15,972 bases of DNA from an uncultured Frankiales bacterium. Lineage in GTDB: Bacteria > Actinomycetota > Actinomycetes > Mycobacteriales > SCTD01. A program made the position numbers and the translations under genes. This document shows, in pieces, positions 2,181-15,972 of the stretch (positions are counted from its first letter, which is position 1; each line of letters starts with the position of its first letter). Below the pieces are notes generated by a model. It saw only the letters and a program-made list of their open reading frames with translations, searched no databases and was not told where the DNA came from. The stretch spans positions 1-15,972 of the forward strand of contig CAMLIA010000092.1 of the NCBI GenBank assembly GCA_946479905.1, read 5' to 3'.

Positions 2181-2576
2181 GTGTTGATATCTCCGCCTTG
2201 CTGGCAGCCCGCCCGTGCCTGGGTGGCCGCGCAGCTCGGGGCGGCGGTGCTGCTGGTGGCGCTGCTGCCGTTCGTCGACCGGCTCGGCTGGGTCATCCTG
2301 CTGCCGACAGCGGGGTACGCCGTCGCCTTCGGGCTCCGGGACCTGCTGCTGCGGCCGGTGCTGGCCGCCGGCCCGGACGGGATCGAGGTCGTGGACGGGC
2401 TGCACCGGGTGCGGGTGGGCTGGGACCAGGTCAGGCGGCTGCGCACCGTCCGGGACCGGCGCACGCCGCTGCTCGAGGTCGACCTCGACCACCGCGTGGT
2501 GGTGCTGTCCCGCAGGCGGCTCGGCGCTCCGGTGGAGGACGTGCTGCGCGCGCTGGAGGAGCTCCGGGTCAGCTGA
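2181..2576 (+). CDS. PH domain-containing membrane protein
   Basis: The 131-residue product has two N-terminal hydrophobic helices (about 13-32 and 35-52). A small beta-rich domain follows (about 60-128), with the run GPDGIEVVDG, WDQVRRLR and LEVDLDHRVVVLSRR. This matches the short actinobacterial bacterial-PH (bPH) proteins encoded next to crgA. The ligand and biochemical role of the family are unknown; attachment at the inner face of the membrane is inferred. The GTG start (2181) lies 10 bases after an AGGAGA sequence; a TTG at the next codon is an alternative start. The gene lies 53 bases after crgA, probably in the same transcript, and its last 8 bases overlap the convergent rhomboid gene. 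Confidence 0.85.
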   Translation: MLISPPCWQPARAWVAAQLGAAVLLVALLPFVDRLGWVILLPTAGYAVAFGLRDLLLRPVLAAGPDGIEVVDGLHRVRVGWDQVRRLRTVRDRRTPLLEVDLDHRVVVLSRRRLGAPVEDVLRALEELRVS

Positions 2577-3450
2577 GCTGGGCGGTGCGGGTGACTGCCA
2601 GAGCGACGAGGAGCACGCCGACCGCGACCACACCGGCCGACTGCAGCGCCGTGCGCTGCTTGGTGTGGGGGGCGTAGACGATCGCCGCGGCCAGCGCCGC
2701 GCCGGTGATGAGGCCGCCGACGTGGCCGCGCCAGTCGATGCCGGACAGCGAGAAGCTGATCACCAGGTTGAGCACGATGGTCGTCGTGATGGGGCTGACG
2801 TCGAGGTTGCGGTGCCGCCCGAGGACGTACCACGCCCCGAAGATCCCGAACACCGCACCGGAGGCGCCGGCGGCCAGCTCGTTCTGCGGCCCGAGCAGGT
2901 AGGAGAGCACCGAGCCGCCCAGCCCGGACATCAGGTAGGTCACGGCGTACCGCACCTGGCCGAAGGCCTGCTCGAGGGCCGGGCCGAGCAGGTAGAGGGC
3001 GTACATGTTGAGGGCGAGGTGGATCGGCCCGAAGTGCAGGAACATCGAGGTGAACAGCCGGTAGTACTCGCCGTGCGCCACCCCGCCGATGCACGGGCCG
3101 TCGACGAAGAGCTGCGGGCACGGGCTGAGGCCGAGCTTCTGGAAGACGGTGCCCCCGGGGTTGCCGTTGAGCACGTTGCCGCCGCCGGCGGACTGCACCA
3201 CCAGCATGGTCACGTTGATCGCGATGAGGGTGTACGTGACGTACGGGACACGCCTCGCCCGGCCGCCGTAGGCCGCCTTCAGCGGGCGGGCACCCTTGTT
3301 CCCCTCCTTCACGCAGTCGGGGCACTGGAAGCCGACCGCCGCCTCGCGCATGCAGTCGGGGCAGATCGGCTTGCCGCACCGGGTGCAGCTGACGTAGGTC
3401 TCCCGGTCGGCGTGGCGGTAGCAGACCGGGACCGCCTCCTGCTCGGTCAG
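2569..3450 (-). CDS. Rhomboid family intramembrane serine protease with N-terminal zinc-binding domain
   Basis: Rhomboids cleave TM segments of other membrane proteins. With the proposed start the protein has 293 residues. The first 46 carry eight spaced Cys/His ligands (C10, H13, C22, C25, C30, C33, C43, C46), a B-box-like module that probably binds two zinc ions. The rhomboid core follows, with HLALN (144-148, oxyanion Asn148), the nucleophile Ser197 in GASG, His243 in WRGHVGG, and about six TM helices. Both catalytic residues are present, so it should be active. No ATG, GTG or TTG precedes the zinc module in this frame. The best start is a CTG (3448-3450) that overlaps the cyclophilin stop as CTGA, with AGGG 7 bases upstream. 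The first in-frame ATG (MREAAVGF) would remove most of the zinc ligands. The family call is firm; the start is inferred. Confidence 0.93.
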   Translation of the reverse strand: MTEQEAVPVCYRHADRETYVSCTRCGKPICPDCMREAAVGFQCPDCVKEGNKGARPLKAAYGGRARRVPYVTYTLIAINVTMLVVQSAGGGNVLNGNPGGTVFQKLGLSPCPQLFVDGPCIGGVAHGEYYRLFTSMFLHFGPIHLALNMYALYLLGPALEQAFGQVRYAVTYLMSGLGGSVLSYLLGPQNELAAGASGAVFGIFGAWYVLGRHRNLDVSPITTTIVLNLVISFSLSGIDWRGHVGGLITGAALAAAIVYAPHTKQRTALQSAGVVAVGVLLVALAVTRTAQLS

Positions 3451-3971
3451 GAGTCGCCCTGCTCGATGGTGATGGCGTTGATGACCACGTCCTCGCGGGG
3501 GCGGTCCATCGCGCCGACCGGCGTCTTGGCGATGGCGTCCACGACGTCGCGGCTGGCCTGGTCGGCGACCTCGCCGAAGATGGTGTGCTTGGTGTTGAGC
3601 CACGGCGTGGGTGCCACCGTGATGAAGAACTGCGACCCGTTGGTGCCCGGGCCGGCGTTGGCCATGGCCAGCAGGTAGGGCTTGGAGAACTGCAGCTCCG
3701 GGTGGATCTCGTCGTTGAAGCGGTAGCCGGGGCCGCCCGTCCCGGTGCCCAGCGGGTCGCCGCCCTGGATCATGAAGCCGTCGATGACCCGGTGGAAGAC
3801 GGTGCCGGCGTAGAGCGAGCCCTCGCCCTTGCTGCCCGTGCGCGGGTTCGTCCACTCACCGGTGCCGTCCGCCAGCCCCACGAAGTTCTTCACCGTCTTC
3901 GGCGCGTGGTTGGGGAACAGCTCGACGCGGATGTCTCCGCGGTTCGTGGACAGCGTCGCAAAGGTGGCCAC
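3447..3971 (-). CDS. ppiA: Cyclophilin-type peptidyl-prolyl cis-trans isomerase
   Basis: This enzyme catalyses cis-trans isomerisation of X-Pro bonds and assists protein folding. The 174-residue product is a single cyclophilin domain. Its signature is FHRVIDGFMIQGGD, which includes Arg61, Phe66 and Gln69, followed by GTNGSQFFIT (Phe115, Phe116) and WLNTKHTIFG (Trp124, His129). These correspond to the known active-site residues, and the Trp that favours cyclosporin binding is present. No signal peptide or TM helix is seen, so it is cytoplasmic. The GTG start (3969-3971) follows GAGGAG at 5-base spacing. It corresponds to the cyclophilin encoded near gyrA in mycobacteria (ppiA), and the symbol rests on that context. 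The stop overlaps the proposed rhomboid start, suggesting translational coupling. Confidence 0.96.
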   Translation of the reverse strand: MATFATLSTNRGDIRVELFPNHAPKTVKNFVGLADGTGEWTNPRTGSKGEGSLYAGTVFHRVIDGFMIQGGDPLGTGTGGPGYRFNDEIHPELQFSKPYLLAMANAGPGTNGSQFFITVAPTPWLNTKHTIFGEVADQASRDVVDAIAKTPVGAMDRPREDVVINAITIEQGDS

Positions 3972-4010: not shown

Positions 4011-5708
4011 CTAAGCGGAGTCCGCACCCCGCGGCGTGGGGGCCACGACGTCGCCGTCGCGGGTGCCGCCGCTCGTGCTGTCCTGGCTGCTGACCGGCCG
4101 GCCGAGCCGCTGGCTGACCGCCCGGCGCAGCAGCGCGTCGACCTGCGCCTCGGGCGGGACGCCCTCGCTGATGCTCGTCCGGTTGCGGCCGGCCCGCTTG
4201 GACCGGTAGAGCGCCTCGTCGGCAGCCCGGACGAGGGTGTCTGAGTCACCGGCGTGCGACGGGTAGGTCGCGACGCCGGCGGAGGCGGTGATCGGGACGA
4301 CGGCCGGGGCCGCGGACACCGCGACCCGGAGCCGCTCGGCGATGTCGCTGGCCTCCTCCGGCCCGCAGCCGGGGAGGATGACGGCGAACTCCTCACCGCC
4401 GTACCGCGCGGGGGTGTCGAAGTCACGGCACTCGCACGACAGCGCCGCCGCGACGTTGCGGAGCACCTCGTCGCCGGCCTGGTGGCCGTGCTGGTCGTTG
4501 AGCTGCTTGAAGTGGTCGATGTCGACCATGACGAGGCTGACGTGCTCGGCGCTGCGGGTGGCGCGGGCCACTTCGCGCTCGAGGGTCGCCTCGAAGGTCC
4601 GCCGGTTGGCGATCTTCGTGAGCCCGTCGGTCGCGGCGAGCCGCTGCACCTGCTCGAGCAGCCAGGCGTTGCGCAGCGCGAGCGCGGCGTAGGACGCCGA
4701 CCGCTCGAGGCCGGTGACGACGCGGCGCTGGATGCGCTGCCCGCCGGTGTGCTCGATGACGAGCGCGCCCAGCGAGCGGCCCTCGGCCGACAGCGGGACG
4801 ACGACGAGGTTGCTCGCCCCGGGCAGCAGCCGGGCCAGCCAAGGGTCGGCCTCGGGGTCGAGGCCGCGTACGAGGACGGTGGCCTTGGACTCGTGCGCCT
4901 GGCCCACCACGAGGGACGGGCCCGGGCGGCCCGGGCGGCGGGCGAGGTCCTCGTCGAGGCCGTAGGACGCCAGCAGCGGCAGGTGCCCCTCGGAGCTGGC
5001 GAGCACGACGCCGCGCGGGAAGCCGTAGGTCGTCACGGCGGCGTCGAGCAGGGTCCGTGCCACCGAGCTGGAGTCGTCGGTGCGCTCGATCTGCTCGGCG
5101 AGGCTGGTCAGCGCCTCGAGGTCACCGCGGCGACGGCGCAGCTCGCGCTCGTTGATGGCCGACAGCGTGCTGGTGGAGATGGCCACCAGCCAGAGCACGA
5201 CGATGAAGATCGCCAGTCGGTGGTCCGCGGTGCCGTAGCCCGACAGGTTGGCCGGCGCGGTGTCGCTGATCACGTGGCCCGCGACCATGTTGCGGATGGT
5301 GAACAGCAGCAGGGAGTGCCACACGGCGAGCTTGATGCCGGTCCGGTAGGACGCGAGCAGGCAGACTGCCCCGAGGTGCAGCAGCACGGCGTAGCGCAGC
5401 GGGCTCGTCGTACCGCCGGTGAGGAACGCGGCCCAGGCGAGGTAGACGCCGTCGACCATGAGCATGCCGCTGAAGAGCACGAGGGTGCGCTTGGGCAGGG
5501 ACCGGGCGAGCAGCTCCGCGATGGCGGTGAGCCCGAGGAAGCCGAAGGTCCACGGCACCAGGTCGTTCCGGTCAGGGAGCAGGGTGTCCGGGGCCACCAG
5601 CTTGCAGAGCAGGACGAGCCCCACCGCTGCGATGCGCAGCCACTGGGTGATCCGGAACCGCTCGTTGACGGGGACGGCGTCCCCGGGAAGCGTGGCGACT
5701 CGGGTCAT
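4011..5708 (-). CDS. Membrane-bound diguanylate cyclase (6 TM - GAF - GGDEF)
   Basis: This enzyme should make the second messenger c-di-GMP from two GTP. The 565 residues hold about six TM helices (roughly 23-40, 52-69, 75-96, 103-121, 124-143, 165-187), a basic linker (EINERELRRRRGD region), a GAF-like sensor domain (about 200-347) and a GGDEF domain (about 355-515). Visible GGDEF motifs are DGLT (361-364), the metal-site stretch VDIDHFK (395-401), RYGGEEF (435-441) and the inhibitory-site RxxD as RDFD (428-431). GGEEF is a catalytically competent variant, and the I-site implies product feedback inhibition. The last 50 residues look disordered. The ATG overlaps the giant gene's stop (ATGA). 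A perfect AAGGAGGT lies 8 bases upstream, inside the giant gene, so the two are made together. No phosphodiesterase (EAL or HD-GYP) domain is present. The input signal is unknown. Confidence 0.95.
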   Translation of the reverse strand: MTRVATLPGDAVPVNERFRITQWLRIAAVGLVLLCKLVAPDTLLPDRNDLVPWTFGFLGLTAIAELLARSLPKRTLVLFSGMLMVDGVYLAWAAFLTGGTTSPLRYAVLLHLGAVCLLASYRTGIKLAVWHSLLLFTIRNMVAGHVISDTAPANLSGYGTADHRLAIFIVVLWLVAISTSTLSAINERELRRRRGDLEALTSLAEQIERTDDSSSVARTLLDAAVTTYGFPRGVVLASSEGHLPLLASYGLDEDLARRPGRPGPSLVVGQAHESKATVLVRGLDPEADPWLARLLPGASNLVVVPLSAEGRSLGALVIEHTGGQRIQRRVVTGLERSASYAALALRNAWLLEQVQRLAATDGLTKIANRRTFEATLEREVARATRSAEHVSLVMVDIDHFKQLNDQHGHQAGDEVLRNVAAALSCECRDFDTPARYGGEEFAVILPGCGPEEASDIAERLRVAVSAAPAVVPITASAGVATYPSHAGDSDTLVRAADEALYRSKRAGRNRTSISEGVPPEAQVDALLRRAVSQRLGRPVSSQDSTSGGTRDGDVVAPTPRGADSA

Positions 5709-8700
5709 GCGTGCGCACCTCCTTCCAGACTGCGTCGCTGGACCGGGCCGAAGTCGAGCTCCGGCTCCGCTCCGACAGGGGCCGACGCGAGCTTGGGGTC
5801 ACGTCGGTCGATCCGGTTCTGCAGCAGCAGGAAGCCAACCACGACACCGAGGAGCAGGAGCGGGATCGTGGGTTTTCGTGCGACCTGCGCGAGAGTGTTG
5901 CCGATCGCCTTCGGCACCTCGGTGGTGATGAAGGAGCCGGGTGTCGGGACGGCAAGGGTCGACCCGGGCCGCACGTGCTTGCTGCTTCCTGCCGCCGAGA
6001 CGGCCGGGCTGGTCAGCCGCTGTCGCGTCGCCGGCCCGAGGTCGGGTGTGGCGACCGCCGGTCCGGCCGGCGTCGTCGTGCCACCGGACGGGCGCGCACC
6101 GGGAACCGACCCGCTGACGCTCGCTGCCCGGTACGTGTAGGGCGTGCTGCGGGTGTACGGGCCCTCGTCGCCGCGGCTGTTGACCAGCTGCACCGTCAGG
6201 GTGAAGGACCCGTGCGGCTGACCGGAGAGGTCGGCGGTGTACCGGCCCGACCCGCAGCTCGCCTGAGCGAGCACGGCGTCGCCGGCGTTGGAGAGCAGGC
6301 AGGTCGCGGAGTAGCCCTTCGGGACGGTGAACGTCCAGGTCGGGTGGCTGCTCGTCCCGCTGGGCGGGGTCAGCAGGTCCGTCACCGCTGGCACCTTGGA
6401 GAAGAACGTGTAGCTCGAGGAGGCCGGTGCCGCGAAGTTGCCCGCCACGTCGACAGCCCAGACCCACAGCGTCCAGGTGCCGGTCTGCGTGAGGAGCTCG
6501 GTGTGCGGCGAGCTGCAGCGGGTGGAGTGCGTCACCGACGGCGCGGTCCGGCCCTTGGTCAGCTGGCAGGTGAACAGCACGCTCGCCGTCCCGAGGTGGC
6601 TCAGGCTGCCGGCAGCGCGCAGGGCGCTCGCGTCGGTCGGCTCCCCGAAGCTCCAGCTGACCTGCGGGCTGGTGCCCGTGTCGCTGGCCAGCGGCCGGAT
6701 GACCGCCGGCGGCGGCGGGACGTCGTCGTAGACGTAGGACGCCGTGGCGGTGCCGCTCAGGTTGCCGGCCGCGTCCTTGCCCCGCACGAACAGCGTGACC
6801 AGCCCCTGAACCCGAGGTGCCACACCGGTGAGCTTCACGGTGGTGCTGCCGTAGCCGCAGGGGGACGCCGTCGCCGGCAACCCGTCGAACCGCGTCACCG
6901 CGCACTGCAGGGTGAGGGCCTCGTCGGACCCGAGTCCCTTCGCGATGCGGAACACCGGCGAGGTGGAGTCGTCGGGCGAGTGCAGGGGCGGGCTCACCAC
7001 GGGCGGGACGGGCGCGTTGGCGTCGAGCACGTACGTCGGCGCGGACACGACCGGGCTCTGGTTGCCGGAGCGGTCGGTCTCGCGGACCTGCAGGGTGTAG
7101 GTCCCTGAGGTCGCCGGGCTGAGGTCGTACGTCACGGGGCTGGTGCACGCGGTCCAGGAGGAGCCCGGCAGCCCCTCGAGCTGGCACTCGAGGGCGTCGG
7201 ACGGATCGCTGAGCTGCACCCCCCAGACCGGCGTGACGACCGGCGAGGGCGAGCCGGGCGTGAGAGTGAGGAGCGGGCCGTCGGGCGGCGTGCGGTCCAG
7301 GGTGTAGTCGCTCGAGCTGCTCGGCCCGATGTTGCCGGCAGCGTCCTTGAGGCGCACCGACAGGGTGTAGACCCCGTCCTGCAGCCAGCTCAGGTCGGTC
7401 GACACGGGCGAGCTGCAGTCGGCCTCCGCCGTCGCGACAGCGGTCGCCGACAGCAGCGTGCACAGGCCGGTGGTGCCCGGGTCGCCGGTGAACGTCCAGG
7501 ACACGAAGGTGGCGTTGCTGGGCGAGACGTGGTCGACGCTGACCCCCGTCGGTGCCCCGGGCGCGACGGTGTCGAGCTCGTAGGAGCTGGACACCTCCGG
7601 GCCGAGGTTGCCGGCGGCGTCGCGCGCCCGGGCCGTCAGCACGTAGGTGCCGTCCGGGCTGGCGGTCAGGTCCGCCGTGAACGTCCCCTGTCCGGCGCCG
7701 GACCCGGGGCAGGTGGTGAAGCTGAGGGCGCTGCCGAAGCGGCACTCGAGCGCCGCGTCGCTGTCACCGGTCAGGGTCCAGGTGACGACCTTGCTGTTGC
7801 CGGGCGTGGGCGGGGCCTGGACGAGGACCGCGGCAGGCGCGGTCGTGTCGAGCAGGTAGGGCGCCGAGGTCGCGTCCGTCGCGTTGCCCGCGGCGTCGCG
7901 CACGGTCACGGTCAGGATGTACGAGCCGTCGGGCGCGCCGGTCAGGTCGGCGGTGAAGGGGGCTCCGCTCTGCGGCGCCGCACAGCTGACGCCGCTCGCG
8001 GGCGTCGTCGGGCCGCTCACGGTGCAGGTCGCGGTGAGCCCGGGCTCGGAACCGGTGACGGTCCACACCGGCTGCCGGCCCGAGGCGGGCGACGACGGCG
8101 TGACGAGCACCGCCGCTGCCGGCGCGGTCCGGTCGAGGACGTAGCTGCTCGTCGTCTCCGCCGAGGTGTTGCCCGCGGTATCGGTGGTGCGCGCAGACAC
8201 GGTGTAGACACCGTCGGCGCCGGTGAGCGTCGGGGCGAAGGTCGACGGGCAGGCCGTCCACGGCACGAGGACCGTGCCGCCGCTCGTGAGCTGGCAGGTG
8301 GCCGCGCCCTCGGTGACCGAGACGCCCCAGACCGGGGAGGTGCTCTGGCTGGGGGACGCGGGGGCCGTGAGGGTCGGCGCGGCAGGGGCGGTCGTGTCGA
8401 GCTCGTAGGAGTCAGTGGCCCCAGGTCCGGTGTTCCCGGCGGCGTCGGTGGCCACGACCGTGAGGGTGTAGGTGCCGTCACCGGGCAGGTCGGCGGTGAA
8501 CGGGCTGGTGCAGGGGCCCGACGAGACGGTGCCGCCGCCGGTGCTCGTCACGGTGCAGGTGGTCGTCGCGCCGGTCTCCGCCGTGAAGCTCCAGGAGGGG
8601 CGCGCGTCCGGCGCAGGGGTCGCCGGCCGGGCGGTGAAGACCGGCGCGGCGGGGGCGGCCCGGTCGAGCACGTAGGTCGCCGTGCCCGCGGATCCGGTGT

Positions 8701-11700
8701 TGCCCGCTGCGTCCGTCAGCGCCACCGCGAGGGTGTAGCTGCCGTCCGGCCGGCTGGACAGGTCGACGACCACCGGGTCGGTGCAGGAGGCGGGACCGGA
8801 CACCGTCGTGGTGCCACTGGTGACGGTGCAGCTCGCGGTGCTGCCGGCCTCCCCGGTGAACCGGAAGGACGGGCTGGTGCCCGAGCCCGGGCTCTGCGGT
8901 GCGGTCACGGTCGGGGCCGTGGGGGCGGCCGTGTCCAGCGTGTAGACGGCGGTGCCGGGTGTGCTCCGCAGACCGACCTCGTCGACCGCACGGACCGACA
9001 GCGTGTAGACGCCGTCCGGCTGGCCGCTCAGGTCCGTCATCACCGGGACCGCGCAGGCGGCCCAGTCCGAGACCAGGCGCGCGCCCTCGCTGGTGGAGCA
9101 CTCCGCGGTGTCACCGGCGGTCAGCGTCACGCCCCACAGCGGCTGGGTGTCACGGCCCGGGCTCGGCGGGGCCGTCACGACCGGTGCGTCGGGCGCCGTC
9201 GTGTCGAGCAGGTACGGGCCGGCGGTGCCTGCCGGGCTGGTGTTGCCCGCAGCGTCGGTGACCGTCACGGAGACCCGCCAGGCCCCGTCGCCGCTGAGCG
9301 TCGGCTGCCACGGGGTGGCGCACGCCGTCGGGGACTGGGCCGTCCCGTCCAGCGAGAGCACGCAGGTCCCGGTGGTGCCCGTCTCGGCGGTCCACGAGAT
9401 CGTCGGGGTGGTGGTGGTCGACGGGCCGGACGGCATGCTCACGAGCGGGGCGGTGGGCGCCGTGGTGTCGAGCCGGTAGGCCAGCGAGCTGCCGGTCGCA
9501 CCGGTGTTGCCGGCGGCGTCGGTGGCGCGCACGTCGAGGGCGTAGTCGTCGTCGGGCATTGCCGTCAGGTCAGCGGTGAAGGGGGTCGTGCACGGCGCCC
9601 AGTCGAGCAGCACGCTGGTCCGCTGCCGCCAGCGGCACTCGGTCGTCGCCCCGGCCTCGGCCGTGATGGCGAAGGACGGCGACCGGTCCTGCGACGGGCT
9701 CTGCGGCGTGGTCACCGTCGGGGCGGGCGGCGGGGTCTGGTCGACGACGTAGGTCGGGCTGGTCGACACCGTGCTCGTGTTGCCGGCCGCGTCGACCACG
9801 GTGACCTGCAGGACGTAGCTGCCCTCGCCCGGCAGCGACAGGGCCGTGCCGCTGGTGCAGGTGAACGCCGCTCCGGCGACCCCGTCCCGCAGCAGCGTGC
9901 AGACGGAGGTGGCGCCGCTCTCGGCAGACCAGGTCCAGGTCGCCGTGGCCGTGCTCGACCGGCCCGACGAGCCGGTCACGGTGGGAGCGACCGGGGCGAC
10001 CGTGTCGAGGGTGTAGGTGCTGGCCGTCGTGCTGAGCGAGGGGTTGCCGGCGGCGTCCGTGAGCTGCACGACCACGACGTAGTCGGCGTCACCGGTGAGC
10101 GTGGGGCTGAAGCTGCCGCTGTTGCACGGGACGGCACTGCCGATGACCCCGTCCCGGTCGAGCCGGCAGGTCGCGGTGACGCCGCTCTCCCCGGTCCACG
10201 TCCACGTCGGCGCGGCGTCGTTGCCGGGGCCGCTGGGCCCGCTGACGGTCGGGGCGCTGGGCGCCGTCCGGTCGGAGGTGTACGCCGCGCTGCTCGCGAT
10301 CGCCGCGGCGTTGCCGGCCAGGTCGGTGACCAGCACGTCGACGGTGTAGGTGCCGTCTGCGGGGTTGTCGACGGTGTAGCGGCCGGTGCTGCAGTCCGTC
10401 CAGCTGGTCGACGCGAGTCCCTGGACCAACCGGCACTGGGCGGTGGTGCCGGACTGGACGGGGAAGGTCCAGCTCGGCGCGGGGTCGTTGCCCGTGCCGG
10501 TCGGTCCGGAGACGGTCGGGCTGTTCGGGGCGGTCGTGTCGAGGACGTACGGCCAGGTGCTGACCGCCGTGTTGCCCGCCGCCTCGGTGGCGGTGACCTC
10601 GACGGTGTAGCCGCCGTCGGCCTGACCGGTCAGGTCGGCGGTGAAGCTCGTCGTGCAGGGGGTGGTCCCCCCGACGGTGCCGGCGGTCGGGGGCGCACCG
10701 ACGAGCAGCCGGCAGGTGATCGTCGTCGTGGGGTCGCCGAGCAGCGTCCAGCTCGGGCTGCGGGACTGGCTGGGCCCGCTCGGTCCGGAGATGACGACGG
10801 CCGTCGGCGCGGAGGTGTCGAGGTCGTAGCCGAAGGTCGACGGCGACGAGGTGTTGCCGGCGGCGTCGGACAGGGTGACGGCGAGCGTCCAGCTGCCGTC
10901 GCTGCCGAGGGTCGGGGTGTAGGTGCCGTTGGTGCAGTCGGTCCACGTCGGGCTGCTGGGCGGGGTGCTGCCCGCGTAGAACGTGCAGGCCGCGGTGCCG
11001 CCCGGGGTCTCCGGGGTGAAGGTGACAGTCGGCGTCGTGTCGTTGCCGGGCGTCGCCGGGGTGCTCAGCACCGGCGGGGCGGGCGCTGTGCCGTCGTACA
11101 GGTAGCTGCCGGAGCTGGTCCCGACGGCGCCCAGGTTGCCGAGCGGGTCGGTGAGCCGCGCCTGGAAGACGTAGCTGCCGTCGCCCGGCAGCGTGGGGTC
11201 GAAGAAGTTCGTGTCGCAGGCGGTCCACGGGCCGTCGGTCGTGACGCCTCCGACCGTGCGCTGCCACCGGCACTCGCCGGTGGACGGGATCTCGCCGTCC
11301 CACGTGATGTGCGGGGTGGCGTCGTTGGACAGCCCGGTCGGGGCGGACACGACCGGTGCGGCAGGGCCGGTCGTGTCGAGCAGGTAGGCGGCACTGGTGG
11401 TGTCGACGGTGTTGCCGTAGCCGTCGTCCTCGGTGACGACGAGGGTCCAGCTGTCGTCGCCGGGGAGGGTGAAGCTCGCGGGCGAGGTGCACGGACCGGA
11501 CGACACGGTGCCGCTGACGGCTCCCACCAGCCGGCAGCTGCTGCTCGCGCCCGGCTCGGTGAACGTCCACGACACCGACGGGTCGGTGCCCGAGCCGCTG
11601 GGTCCGGCGCTGAAGACCGCCGCGGCCGAGGGAGTCGTGTCGAGGGTGTAGGTCGGACCCGTCGCGACGGGGCTGCGGTTGCCGGCGGCGTCGGAGAGCA

Positions 11701-12544
11701 CGACCGTCAGCTGGTAGTCGCCGTCGGTCGCGATCGCACCGGTGTAGGAGGTGTGGGTCGTGCAGGGCACCTCACTGCCCGGGCCGGCCGGCGTCGAGAG
11801 GGTGCACAGCGCCGCGACGTCCTCCGGGTTGGACCACGTCCACGTGGGGCTGGTGTCGCTGCCCGTGCCGCTCGCGCCGGACACCGTGGTCGCGGCCGGG
11901 GCGCTGGTGTCCAGGACGTAGGTCGTGGAGGAGGGGACGGAGGTGTTGCCGGTCGGGTCGGTGGCGGTCACGTCGAGGGTGTGGCTGCCCTCGGCGAGGT
12001 CGCTGGCCGGCGTGAACCCCCCGGTGCAGTCGGCAGCTGGGGCTCCGTCCAGCGAGCAGCTGGCGGTGCCGGACGGCTCGACCGAGATGGCCCACGTGGG
12101 CCGCGGGTCGGCACCGGGGGACGGCGGCGGGGTGACGGTGAGGTCGGCGACCGTGTCCAGGGTGTAGGCCACGGTCGCGGGCAGCCCGTCGCCGGCCTGG
12201 GTCTTCTCGCGCACCGAGAGCGTGTAGGTCCCGTCCGTCGTCAGGGCGGGCACGGTCCAGGGGCTGAAGCAGTCCGCGTACGACGGGGACGGGTCGGAGG
12301 CGAGGGCGGCTGAGCACTCGTACTGCGTGCCGCCACCCGTGAACGTGACCACGGGCGACCGGTCGTTGGACGTGACCGTGGCTGCGGGGCTGCTGATCAC
12401 GGGCGCCGGGGCGGAGGCGTGCGCCGGGACGGCGAGGGCGACGAAGCCGGTCGAGGCCACGGTCGAGGTGAGGAGCAGGGCAGCGGCGCTCCGCACCGCA
12501 CGAGTCCGTGTGGTGCGAAGCAGACGCCATGCGCCCAACGTCAC
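5705..12544 (-). CDS. Giant secreted, membrane-anchored protein with 23 Ig-like repeats
   Basis: With the chosen start the product has 2,279 residues. A basic N-terminus and hydrophobic core end in PAHA|SAPA, a signal peptide (cleavage near 43). Twenty-three repeats of about 91 residues follow (44-2142). The usual repeat runs PSGPGxxxSPTWTFT, then C-x-L, a second Cys, the stretch DGxYTLxVxxTDAAGN, and ends in YxLDTTAPxAP. This is the pattern of bacterial Ig-like (Big-type) surface repeats. Each repeat has exactly two cysteines. After a Gly/Pro/Thr-rich linker (about 2143-2224) come a TM helix (2225-2242) and a 37-residue tail beginning NRIDRRDPKLA. There is no LPxTG-like sorting signal, so it is membrane-anchored with the repeats outside. 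The GTG at 12542-12544 has AGGAG 5 bases upstream; a GTG at 12550 overlaps that site. An adhesive or receptor role is inferred; the binding partner is unknown. Translation is coupled to the cyclase gene. Confidence 0.9.
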   Translation of the reverse strand: MTLGAWRLLRTTRTRAVRSAAALLLTSTVASTGFVALAVPAHASAPAPVISSPAATVTSNDRSPVVTFTGGGTQYECSAALASDPSPSYADCFSPWTVPALTTDGTYTLSVREKTQAGDGLPATVAYTLDTVADLTVTPPPSPGADPRPTWAISVEPSGTASCSLDGAPAADCTGGFTPASDLAEGSHTLDVTATDPTGNTSVPSSTTYVLDTSAPAATTVSGASGTGSDTSPTWTWSNPEDVAALCTLSTPAGPGSEVPCTTHTSYTGAIATDGDYQLTVVLSDAAGNRSPVATGPTYTLDTTPSAAAVFSAGPSGSGTDPSVSWTFTEPGASSSCRLVGAVSGTVSSGPCTSPASFTLPGDDSWTLVVTEDDGYGNTVDTTSAAYLLDTTGPAAPVVSAPTGLSNDATPHITWDGEIPSTGECRWQRTVGGVTTDGPWTACDTNFFDPTLPGDGSYVFQARLTDPLGNLGAVGTSSGSYLYDGTAPAPPVLSTPATPGNDTTPTVTFTPETPGGTAACTFYAGSTPPSSPTWTDCTNGTYTPTLGSDGSWTLAVTLSDAAGNTSSPSTFGYDLDTSAPTAVVISGPSGPSQSRSPSWTLLGDPTTTITCRLLVGAPPTAGTVGGTTPCTTSFTADLTGQADGGYTVEVTATEAAGNTAVSTWPYVLDTTAPNSPTVSGPTGTGNDPAPSWTFPVQSGTTAQCRLVQGLASTSWTDCSTGRYTVDNPADGTYTVDVLVTDLAGNAAAIASSAAYTSDRTAPSAPTVSGPSGPGNDAAPTWTWTGESGVTATCRLDRDGVIGSAVPCNSGSFSPTLTGDADYVVVVQLTDAAGNPSLSTTASTYTLDTVAPVAPTVTGSSGRSSTATATWTWSAESGATSVCTLLRDGVAGAAFTCTSGTALSLPGEGSYVLQVTVVDAAGNTSTVSTSPTYVVDQTPPPAPTVTTPQSPSQDRSPSFAITAEAGATTECRWRQRTSVLLDWAPCTTPFTADLTAMPDDDYALDVRATDAAGNTGATGSSLAYRLDTTAPTAPLVSMPSGPSTTTTPTISWTAETGTTGTCVLSLDGTAQSPTACATPWQPTLSGDGAWRVSVTVTDAAGNTSPAGTAGPYLLDTTAPDAPVVTAPPSPGRDTQPLWGVTLTAGDTAECSTSEGARLVSDWAACAVPVMTDLSGQPDGVYTLSVRAVDEVGLRSTPGTAVYTLDTAAPTAPTVTAPQSPGSGTSPSFRFTGEAGSTASCTVTSGTTTVSGPASCTDPVVVDLSSRPDGSYTLAVALTDAAGNTGSAGTATYVLDRAAPAAPVFTARPATPAPDARPSWSFTAETGATTTCTVTSTGGGTVSSGPCTSPFTADLPGDGTYTLTVVATDAAGNTGPGATDSYELDTTAPAAPTLTAPASPSQSTSPVWGVSVTEGAATCQLTSGGTVLVPWTACPSTFAPTLTGADGVYTVSARTTDTAGNTSAETTSSYVLDRTAPAAAVLVTPSSPASGRQPVWTVTGSEPGLTATCTVSGPTTPASGVSCAAPQSGAPFTADLTGAPDGSYILTVTVRDAAGNATDATSAPYLLDTTAPAAVLVQAPPTPGNSKVVTWTLTGDSDAALECRFGSALSFTTCPGSGAGQGTFTADLTASPDGTYVLTARARDAAGNLGPEVSSSYELDTVAPGAPTGVSVDHVSPSNATFVSWTFTGDPGTTGLCTLLSATAVATAEADCSSPVSTDLSWLQDGVYTLSVRLKDAAGNIGPSSSSDYTLDRTPPDGPLLTLTPGSPSPVVTPVWGVQLSDPSDALECQLEGLPGSSWTACTSPVTYDLSPATSGTYTLQVRETDRSGNQSPVVSAPTYVLDANAPVPPVVSPPLHSPDDSTSPVFRIAKGLGSDEALTLQCAVTRFDGLPATASPCGYGSTTVKLTGVAPRVQGLVTLFVRGKDAAGNLSGTATASYVYDDVPPPPAVIRPLASDTGTSPQVSWSFGEPTDASALRAAGSLSHLGTASVLFTCQLTKGRTAPSVTHSTRCSSPHTELLTQTGTWTLWVWAVDVAGNFAAPASSSYTFFSKVPAVTDLLTPPSGTSSHPTWTFTVPKGYSATCLLSNAGDAVLAQASCGSGRYTADLSGQPHGSFTLTVQLVNSRGDEGPYTRSTPYTYRAASVSGSVPGARPSGGTTTPAGPAVATPDLGPATRQRLTSPAVSAAGSSKHVRPGSTLAVPTPGSFITTEVPKAIGNTLAQVARKPTIPLLLLGVVVGFLLLQNRIDRRDPKLASAPVGAEPELDFGPVQRRSLEGGAHA
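5717..5724 (-). promoter_or_regulatory. Perfect ribosome binding site for the diguanylate cyclase inside the giant gene
   Basis: AAGGAGGT, a full match to the anti-Shine-Dalgarno core, lies 8 bases before the cyclase ATG (5706-5708). It encodes part of the SLEGGAHA tail of the giant protein. This fixes the cyclase start and supports translational coupling. Confidence 0.85.
6119..12415 (-). repeat. Array of 23 divergent Ig-like repeats, mean period about 273 bases
   Basis: Repeat boundaries are marked by the YxLDTTAP codons. On the plus strand these appear as recurring (g)tgtcgag or tgtccag motifs, near 12155, 11908, 11640, 11375, 11092, 10818, 10537, 10270, 10004, 9742, 9466, 9205, 8934, 8662, 8395, 8130, 7845, 7567, 7291, 7020, 6723 and 6397. 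Units are clearly homologous at protein level but well diverged in DNA, with no near-identical neighbours noticed. The expansion therefore looks old. Repeats 21-23 lack the consensus LDTTAP ending. Confidence 0.85.
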
Positions 12545-12849: not shown

Positions 12850-12975
12850 TCAGCGCAGGTCGGGGTCCTTCGTCGCGCTCTTCCACACGTCCCGCTCGCT
12901 GCGCTGGGCCTGCGCCCGCTTCGCGAGGGCCGCCGCGGCGCCGAGCAGGGCGACCAGCAGGACGGGCTTGCGCAT
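12850..12975 (-). CDS. DLW-39 family peptide (41 aa)
   Basis: The 41-residue product begins MRKPVLLVALLGAAAALAKR, a single short hydrophobic helix after a basic start. It continues with a charged tail containing RDVWKSAT and ends DPDLR. This layout matches the small actinobacterial DLW-39 family, whose name comes from a DLW motif; here the motif reads DVW. Function is unknown. The ATG (12973-12975) has GGAGGTGA at 5-base spacing, one of the best ribosome binding sites in the window. The gene is wedged between tRNA-Ile (start 28 bases after its CCA end) and tRNA-Ala (7 bases after its stop), so it is presumably made from the same primary transcript and released by tRNA processing. Confidence 0.85.
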   Translation of the reverse strand: MRKPVLLVALLGAAAALAKRAQAQRSERDVWKSATKDPDLR

Positions 12976-13002
12976 GGCGGTCACCTCCGGGTGGGGACGT
13001 GC

Positions 13003-13107: not shown

Positions 13108-13874
13108 TCAGTCGCGCTCGGCGAGCGTGACTTCCAGGCCGCCGGTGAAGGTGGCGACGAGGTTGTAGAGCATCGACCCGATCGTCGCGAGGGCGGTCAG
13201 GAACAGCACGTTGCTGCCGGCGATGAGGGCGGCGATCCCGACGAACTTGCCCTGCGTCAGCAGGTTCTGGTTCTTGGTGATGTCACCGATGTTGCTGTTG
13301 ATGCTCTTCGGCACGCCGAGCCCGCTGAGGACGCCGTAGAGCACGAACGCGCCCACGATCGTCACCACTGCCAGCAGCAGCGACAGCACCAGGCTGGTGA
13401 CGAAGACCGACCACGGGTCGAGCCGCTTGACGGCCAGCTTGGCGCGCCGTCGCTGCCCCCGCCCGGCCCCCGGGCGCGACATCGGGCGCGGCGCGGGCCG
13501 CCGGACGTTCTCGGGGACGACGGTGGCGGCCGCCAGGCTGCCCGCCATGTCAGGGGGCGTGGTCGCCGGGCCCGGTCGCGGCGGTGGCAGCGGGCTGGGG
13601 CGGGGCGGTACGCCGCTGGCCACGGGTGGGCGGACGGGGTTGCTCGCCGCGCCGACCGGGAGGGGCGAGGTCGCGCCCGCGCCGACGCTGCCGGGCTGGC
13701 GCGCCGGCTCCGGGCGGCCCGGCCACCCGGTCGGTGCCGGCCGCGCCGGGATCGGCCGGGCGGGGCCGGTCCAGGCCCGTGGTGCCGGCTCGGCCGGGCC
13801 GTCCGACGACGCCGGGGCGTCAGGCGCGGGACCCTCGTCCTCCGCGTCAGGTCGAGACGGCTCGACGGGGCCCG

Positions 13875-13878
<4 letters not shown>
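13108..13878 (-). CDS. DUF3566 domain membrane protein
   Basis: This 256-residue protein has a long Pro/Ala-rich, probably disordered N-terminal region (about 1-145). A basic patch ([18 protein letters not shown]) and two TM helices (about 157-183 and 212-238) follow. The [13 protein letters not shown] entry to TM1 and the short [11 protein letters not shown] end are typical of DUF3566 proteins encoded directly after gyrA in actinobacteria. The function is unestablished. The start overlaps the gyrA stop (ATGA), so it is coupled to gyrA. The disordered region varies widely in length in this family and probably faces the cytoplasm (inference from the basic patch before TM1). Confidence 0.93.

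Positions 13879-15972
<2,094 letters not shown>

What the first reader, a model, noticed from the sequence alone, without database searches (positions are those of the whole stretch)
4011..12544. Candidate surface-receptor to c-di-GMP module: giant Ig-repeat protein coupled to a diguanylate cyclase
Seen: the giant gene's stop overlaps the cyclase start (ATGA), and a perfect AAGGAGGT for the cyclase lies within its 3' end. The first protein has 23 outward Ig-like domains, one TM helix and a short cytoplasmic tail. The second has six TM helices, a GAF-like domain and an intact GGEEF plus RxxD I-site. Known: c-di-GMP usually links surface contact to adhesion, development or motility. Inference: the two proteins work together. 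Either the rod senses contact and its tail or TM helix tunes the cyclase, or the cyclase controls display of the adhesin. Coupling at fixed ratio fits a complex. I know of no described system of this form, but I cannot search.
Basis: partly seen in the sequence, partly recalled or inferred. Interest (0 to 1): 0.75.

Follow-up and report, generated by a model that had tools for sequence, protein, structure and literature searches.

The report
Surface-protein subunit paired with c-di-GMP cyclase
A giant Ig-repeat surface protein ends in a conserved membrane plug that, in scattered lineages across the Actinobacteria, is usually encoded directly before a six-helix membrane signalling enzyme (mostly a c-di-GMP cyclase, sometimes a histidine kinase), which suggests an undescribed two-part membrane receptor.

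Summary
In detail: the giant gene (5705-12544, minus strand) overlaps the cyclase (4011-5708) by ATGA, with 23 two-cysteine Ig units, one C-terminal TM helix and a 37-residue tail; the cyclase has GAF, GGEEF and RxxD. The pairing is not local. Profiles of the giant's TM/tail (48 residues, QxRIDRRDPKLA) and of the cyclase membrane domain hit 19 and 25 of the same 396 genomes, 18 shared. Over all loci, 78 of 92 distinct tails lie directly before such an enzyme, 67 with a 4-nt overlap; once they form one frame. The TM/tail and six-helix domain are constant, not the Ig rod: in the even sample 19 of 21 partner frames are under 600 aa. Output changes too: seven enzymes look like histidine kinases (five by Pfam), one adds EAL. 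The membrane domain is distantly 6TM_PilS-like, and PilS reads a pilin in the membrane. Best reading: the single-pass protein is the input subunit of a split membrane receptor. Contact, direction and signal are not shown; AlphaFold models of the natural fusion gave no confident docking. Ten open-access literature searches listed no description.

The parts
5705..12544 (-). giant single-pass surface protein, 2279 aa, GTG start
12413..12544 (-). signal-peptide-like N-terminus (residues 1-44)
   Evidence: read from the sequence
6131..12406 (-). array of 23 Ig-like units, each with two Cys
   Evidence: repeat profile; Pfam Big_13
5819..5869 (-). C-terminal TM helix (about residues 2226-2242)
   Evidence: limits by eye; conserved in alignments A1 and A3
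5777..5821 (-). tail motif QNRIDRRDPKLASAP, strongly conserved among relatives
   Evidence: 56 of 61 hits match the first motif pattern and P0158 carries it with one change
5708..5818 (-). cytoplasmic tail, 37 residues
5717..5724 (-). AAGGAGGT ribosome-binding-like site for the cyclase inside the giant's 3' end
5705..5708 (-). ATGA stop/start overlap
4011..5708 (-). membrane diguanylate cyclase, 565 aa
5109..5708 (-). six-helix membrane domain (about residues 1-200), distant 6TM_PilS-like, ends in NERELRRRR
   Evidence: 19.5 bits, E 8.5e-4, below the curated cut-off of 27
4674..5075 (-). GAF domain
4179..4637 (-). GGDEF domain
4386..4400 (-). GGEEF active-site motif
4416..4427 (-). RxxD inhibitory site (RDFD)

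Best explanation
The giant and the cyclase are the two subunits of one membrane signalling unit. The single-pass protein carries a variable outer part (here a 23-unit Ig rod, in most of the evenly sampled genomes a short one) on a constant TM helix and QxRIDRRDPKLA tail. That constant part docks on the six-helix domain of the enzyme (as PilA does on PilS) and sets the state of its stalk, GAF domain and output domain. Shown by sequence: the pairing, its spread, one natural fusion, change of output domain, conservation of tail and membrane domain, joint divergence. Inferred: physical docking, signal flow from outside to inside, and the nature of the signal (binding, cell-wall or surface contact, or subunit abundance).
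For: Same 396 genomes: tail profile 19, membrane-domain profile 25, overlap 18; hypergeometric P 1.5e-24, relatedness not corrected. Paired places: 32 of 37, 17 of 21, 22 of 28, 15 of 16, 18 of 21 in five searches that share some loci; 78 of 92 after removing duplicates, 67 with a 4-nt overlap. L032 encodes tail and cyclase in one frame. Of 14 genomes, one for each unpaired tail, 11 hold such an enzyme elsewhere. Five distant cyclases follow an ORF that by eye ends in a TM helix and short tail without the motif. Output change with the same pairing: HisKA_3 in L147, L148, L149, L150, L112; GGDEF+EAL in L022. 6TM_PilS matches in 12 of 18 members at E up to 1; PilS is said to interact directly with PilA (PMC6058289, passages). 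Tail and membrane-domain distances correlate, Spearman 0.53, 0 of 500 permutations reaching it. Structural likeness of the six-helix part to adenylyl cyclase anchors and ImcA.
Against: No contact is shown: in models of the natural fusion the TM helix has pLDDT 65-79, the tail below 60, and there is no interface score. 14 of 92 tails have no adjacent enzyme, and three of the 14 genomes searched have none detected. G223 has a tail and an enzyme on different contigs, each without the other beside it. L161 has the cyclase at the gyrA-like site without the giant, its only detected tail elsewhere. Tail distances correlate nearly as well with the GAF region (0.49) as with the membrane domain (0.53), so joint inheritance explains most of it. 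The fusion is in one MAG. The membrane-domain profile was built from enzymes found beside tails or close to the window's, which favours paired finds. The system is patchy: 19 of 396 genomes.
Confidence: 0.65

Rival explanations
1. Inside-out control: the enzyme is the regulator and the single-pass protein its target. The six-helix domain, changed by its output state or by lipids, controls display, stability or shedding of the outer protein.
For: Adjacency and fusion fit either direction. A GAF domain gives the cyclase its own possible input.
Against: The same pairing occurs with histidine kinases, whose usual role is to pass an input inward (general knowledge). Many partners have short outer parts; the five short ones scanned gave no Pfam match, which fits adhesins poorly. 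In the BLAST the window's rhomboid is found near the pair in only 6 of 37 loci; other proteases were not looked for.
Confidence: 0.18
2. Operon neighbours only: translational coupling keeps two proteins at a similar level, without direct contact, and the tail interacts with something else such as the cell-division or export machinery.
For: Unpaired tails exist (14 of 92). No modelled docking.
Against: The pairing persists in different neighbourhoods, beside a gyrA-like gene or not, with different outputs, and once as a fusion.
Confidence: 0.12
3. The tail is a general stop-transfer, sorting or proteolysis signal, for instance for the rhomboid protease two genes downstream, and the cyclase is incidental.
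For: A rhomboid-like gene lies within 2569-3537 in the window; basic residues after a TM helix are a usual stop-transfer feature (general knowledge).
Against: More conservation than a positive-inside signal needs (Q23 and F46 invariant in 51 rows). In one search the rhomboid neighbour is seen in 6 of 37 loci (L001, L003, L005, L006, L016, L018). No LPxTG was seen on reading the giant's end.
Confidence: 0.05

Closest known systems
PilS-PilA (six-helix sensor kinase regulated by a single-pass pilin)
   Same: Six-helix membrane domain of the PilS-like type, single-pass partner with an outer part, output domain inside. PMC6058289 (passages) states the six segments let PilS interact directly with PilA; the primary paper (Kilmury and Burrows 2016) is not held and was not read.
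   Different: Partner here has a C-terminal TM and a conserved cytoplasmic tail, is encoded directly upstream with a 4-nt overlap in most pairs, and the output is mostly GGDEF with GAF.
Membrane adenylyl cyclase anchors (Rv1625c, AC5, AC9) and the membrane DGC ImcA
WalK with YycH/YycI (WalHI)
   Same: Accessory membrane proteins of a sensor enzyme (PMC7355866, start of abstract in the listing).
   Different: Firmicute system with a different kinase; no shared sequence feature was tested.
GrtK, ammonia-sensing 6TM_PilS kinase
   Same: PF25323 membrane domain in a sensor kinase (PMC12918730, passages).
   Different: No single-pass partner appears in the passages read.

Membership tests
Diguanylate cyclase (GGDEF) | GGDEF domain above the Pfam cut-off | tested here: met
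   157.7 bits against 23.8
Diguanylate cyclase (GGDEF) | GG[DE]EF active site and RxxD inhibitory site | tested here: met
   GGEEF, RDFD
Diguanylate cyclase (GGDEF) | makes c-di-GMP | not testable with these tools
   needs enzyme assay
6TM_PilS membrane domain (PF25323) | curated gathering score, window protein | tested here: not met
   19.5 bits against 27, E 8.5e-4; relatives L147, L148, L149, L022 exceed 27. Not filed as a member; likeness only.
6TM_PilS membrane domain (PF25323) | six transmembrane helices followed by a stalk | tested here: met
   six helices in the AlphaFold models of relative L032, last one long; window protein not modelled
PilS-type sensor regulated by a TM partner | direct intramembrane contact with a single-pass protein | tested here: inconclusive
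   TM helix pLDDT 65-79, no interface score
LPxTG sortase-anchored surface protein | LPxTG-type signal before the C-terminal TM | tested here: not met
   none seen on reading the last residues of the giant; no motif program run
Bacterial Ig-like (Big_13) repeat protein | Big_13 domains above the cut-off | tested here: met
   292.4 bits against 27

The most novel reading that the evidence does not exclude
A modular split receptor of Actinobacteria: a universal TM/tail plug carries freely exchanged outer domains, from under 200 aa to a 23-unit rod and more, and fits a six-helix socket that carries exchangeable outputs (GGDEF, GGDEF-EAL, histidine kinase). Extra plugs encoded elsewhere in the genome share the same socket.
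Probability: 0.5. Interest if true: 0.85.

Novelty: new variant of a known kind. Interest (0 to 1): 0.73.

Why it matters
Inputs of most membrane cyclases and of six-helix membrane domains are unknown (general knowledge). Here the likely input subunit is encoded in an overlapping gene with a short, strongly conserved interface candidate, in several lineages and with two kinds of output, so how a six-helix domain is switched by a protein in the membrane becomes directly testable by mutation. It would also give a function to a family of giant Ig-repeat proteins whose given names are mostly hypothetical or large repetitive protein.

Tried and rejected
Searching the window's own genome failed: none is held. 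Kilmury and Burrows 2016 is not held. Alignments A4-A8 put the tails or the first helix in the wrong columns and were not used; only A9 and A10, checked at three and two motifs, went to AlphaFold. The models did not settle docking. Neither profile matched a PDB sequence at E up to 1. Two weak membrane-domain hits (L108, L109) looked like other proteins and were set aside. A first regex for GGDEF caught a different motif and was replaced; a first distance test failed on empty overlaps and was repeated without short rows. Rhomboid cleavage, sortase anchoring and operon-only synteny were considered and ranked low.

Literature: ten searches of the open-access library; nothing in the listings I saw describes this pair. 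The motif strings are in no held paper. One search found no paper with four of five terms.

Rows dropped: alignment A2 used 18 of 21 pieces printed, A3 51 of 57 printed. One search left out tail hits lying more than 60 residues from the end of their frame unless fused, and kept one locus for each identical C-terminal stretch of up to 60 aa; its enzyme starts were picked by a rule (first ATG, GTG, TTG or CTG from 20 nt before the partner's stop). One search used 72 of 78 pairs (fusion and cut rows left out). The frame lengths leave out frames cut by the locus end, which favours short ones; one search reports whole frames.

Full report
WHAT IS THERE. The window is an actinobacterial block read on the minus strand: a gyrA-like frame (13875-15971) and a small membrane protein (13108-13878), both named from recall; tRNA-Ile and tRNA-Ala; the giant (5705-12544); the cyclase (4011-5708); a peptidylprolyl isomerase (3447-3971) and a rhomboid-like protein (both below the NCBIfam cut-offs of the named families). 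The giant has 23 Ig units, each with two cysteines, a linker, one TM helix and a 37-residue tail. The cyclase start overlaps the giant's stop as ATGA with AAGGAGGT 8 nt before. The cyclase has GAF and GGDEF domains with GGEEF and RxxD.

THE CONSTANT PART IS THE TAIL. A search with the giant's last 330 residues returned 61 proteins. 56 of 61 match my first pattern for the tail motif and one more (P0158) carries it with one changed residue; of the other four, two end without a TM/tail and two are other proteins. In the first 20-row alignment the 48-residue TM/tail has 14 invariant columns; in a 51-row, wider one Q23 and F46 are invariant and P9, F19, D27, R28, D30, P31, A36 nearly so. By comparing the listings by eye, 15 contig lengths occur in both the cyclase and the giant list, an early hint of linkage.

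THE PAIRING. The tail profile A1 was made from the giants alone. In named genomes 118 stretches matched its patterns and 37 were confirmed: Frankiales and Frankiaceae MAGs, Pseudonocardiales, Acidimicrobiaceae, Nitriliruptorales, Acidothermus, Kineosporiaceae, Kineosporia sp. A_224, Cellulomonas marina, other actinobacterial MAGs, and MAGs labelled Chloroflexi and Acidobacteriota. 32 of 37 have an enzyme with the same membrane domain directly downstream. In 396 genomes drawn evenly from the phylum, the tail profile hit 19 (21 places) and the membrane-domain profile 25 (26 places), 18 in common; chance overlap this large has P 1.5e-24, with no correction for relatedness. Of the 21 tail places, 17 are paired. 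Of the 26 membrane-domain places, by my reading follow a recognisable tail, five follow an ORF that by eye ends in a diverged TM helix and tail, one (G223) has no partner at the spot, and two are weak hits to other proteins. Further samples gave 22 of 28, 15 of 16 and 18 of 21 paired places; these sets share some loci. Tail-positive genomes were 23 of 200, 15 of 148 and 16 of 345 there, and 7 of 16 and 7 of 27 in two small orders, so the system is patchy. After removing duplicates 78 of 92 distinct tails are paired, 67 with exactly 4 nt of overlap. The membrane-domain profile was built mostly from paired enzymes, so it is not free of selection.

FUSION, EXTRA PARTNERS, CHANGED OUTPUTS. In L032 (MAG Centralia_MAG_137) the tail runs in frame into the cyclase through a linker of about 15 residues; no stop lies between. 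Two other genomes of its family were searched: one has a separate pair, one no tail. A single MAG could be mis-assembled. For the 14 unpaired tails, one genome each was searched for the enzyme: 11 of 14 have it. One of these (G426) has the cyclase at the gyrA-like site with no giant (L161). Two unpaired tails lie about 20-30 nt before a hydrolase-like gene in two genomes. The enzyme's output changes: HisKA_3 in L147-L150 and L112, GGDEF plus EAL in L022; L151 and L152 look like the kinase type from sequence alone. So of 78 pairs, seven are kinase-type, 63 show GGDEF (62 by pattern, L022 by Pfam), and eight are cut or end before the motif is complete. Of the 62, 59 carry RxxD.

OUTER PARTS. In the even sample, partner frames run from 183 to 2,317 residues and 19 of 21 are under 600; elsewhere they reach 3,170. 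L008, L010 and L016 have Ig repeats; L017, L022, L026, L033 and L037 give no Pfam match, and short ones printed read as rich in P, S and T. The giant rod is therefore one elaboration, not the defining part.

MECHANISM. PilS is stated to use its six segments to interact directly with PilA (PMC6058289, passages). By analogy I propose that the partner's TM helix and RIDRRDPKLA tail dock on the six-helix domain and pass the state of the outer part to stalk, GAF and output. Outside-in is favoured because the same pairing serves histidine kinases. Tail and membrane-domain distances correlate (0.53), but tail and GAF distances do too (0.49); partial values are 0.31 and 0.23, so co-inheritance as a unit is shown and specific co-evolution only hinted.

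NOVELTY. Ten searches of an open-access library listed no description; subscription papers are mostly not held. A survey of Streptomyces c-di-GMP proteins (PMC6205966, passages) lists 6TM proteins with GGDEF-EAL or HD-GYP outputs but no such pair in the passages read; I did not test whether their membrane domains are related. I class it as a new variant of a known kind: a sensor enzyme with an accessory membrane subunit.

Noticed in passing
window 6131-12406: Every one of the 23 Ig units carries two cysteines, as if each were disulphide-locked (inference).
   Followed up: partly
L161 (G426:C11): The gyrA-like site keeps the cyclase but lacks the giant; the only tail protein detected in that genome lies elsewhere (L074). 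A natural case for testing partner sharing.
   Followed up: partly
L023 9383-11198 and L034 830-3011: Unpaired tail proteins about 20-30 nt upstream of a metallo-beta-lactamase-fold-like hydrolase gene (fold named from recall) in two genomes that also hold a full pair.
   Followed up: no
L155-L160: Downstream of six kinase-type members, the same-strand gene calls show a response-regulator-like gene only in L158 (about 590 nt downstream; named from recall).
   Followed up: partly
L103-L107: Distant cyclases preceded by an ORF ending in a TM helix and a short tail without the RIDRRDPKL motif: the pairing may outlive the motif.
   Followed up: partly
window 12862-12976: Short ORF between tRNA-Ile and tRNA-Ala, resembling the small DLW-39 family of Actinobacteria (recalled).
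   Followed up: no
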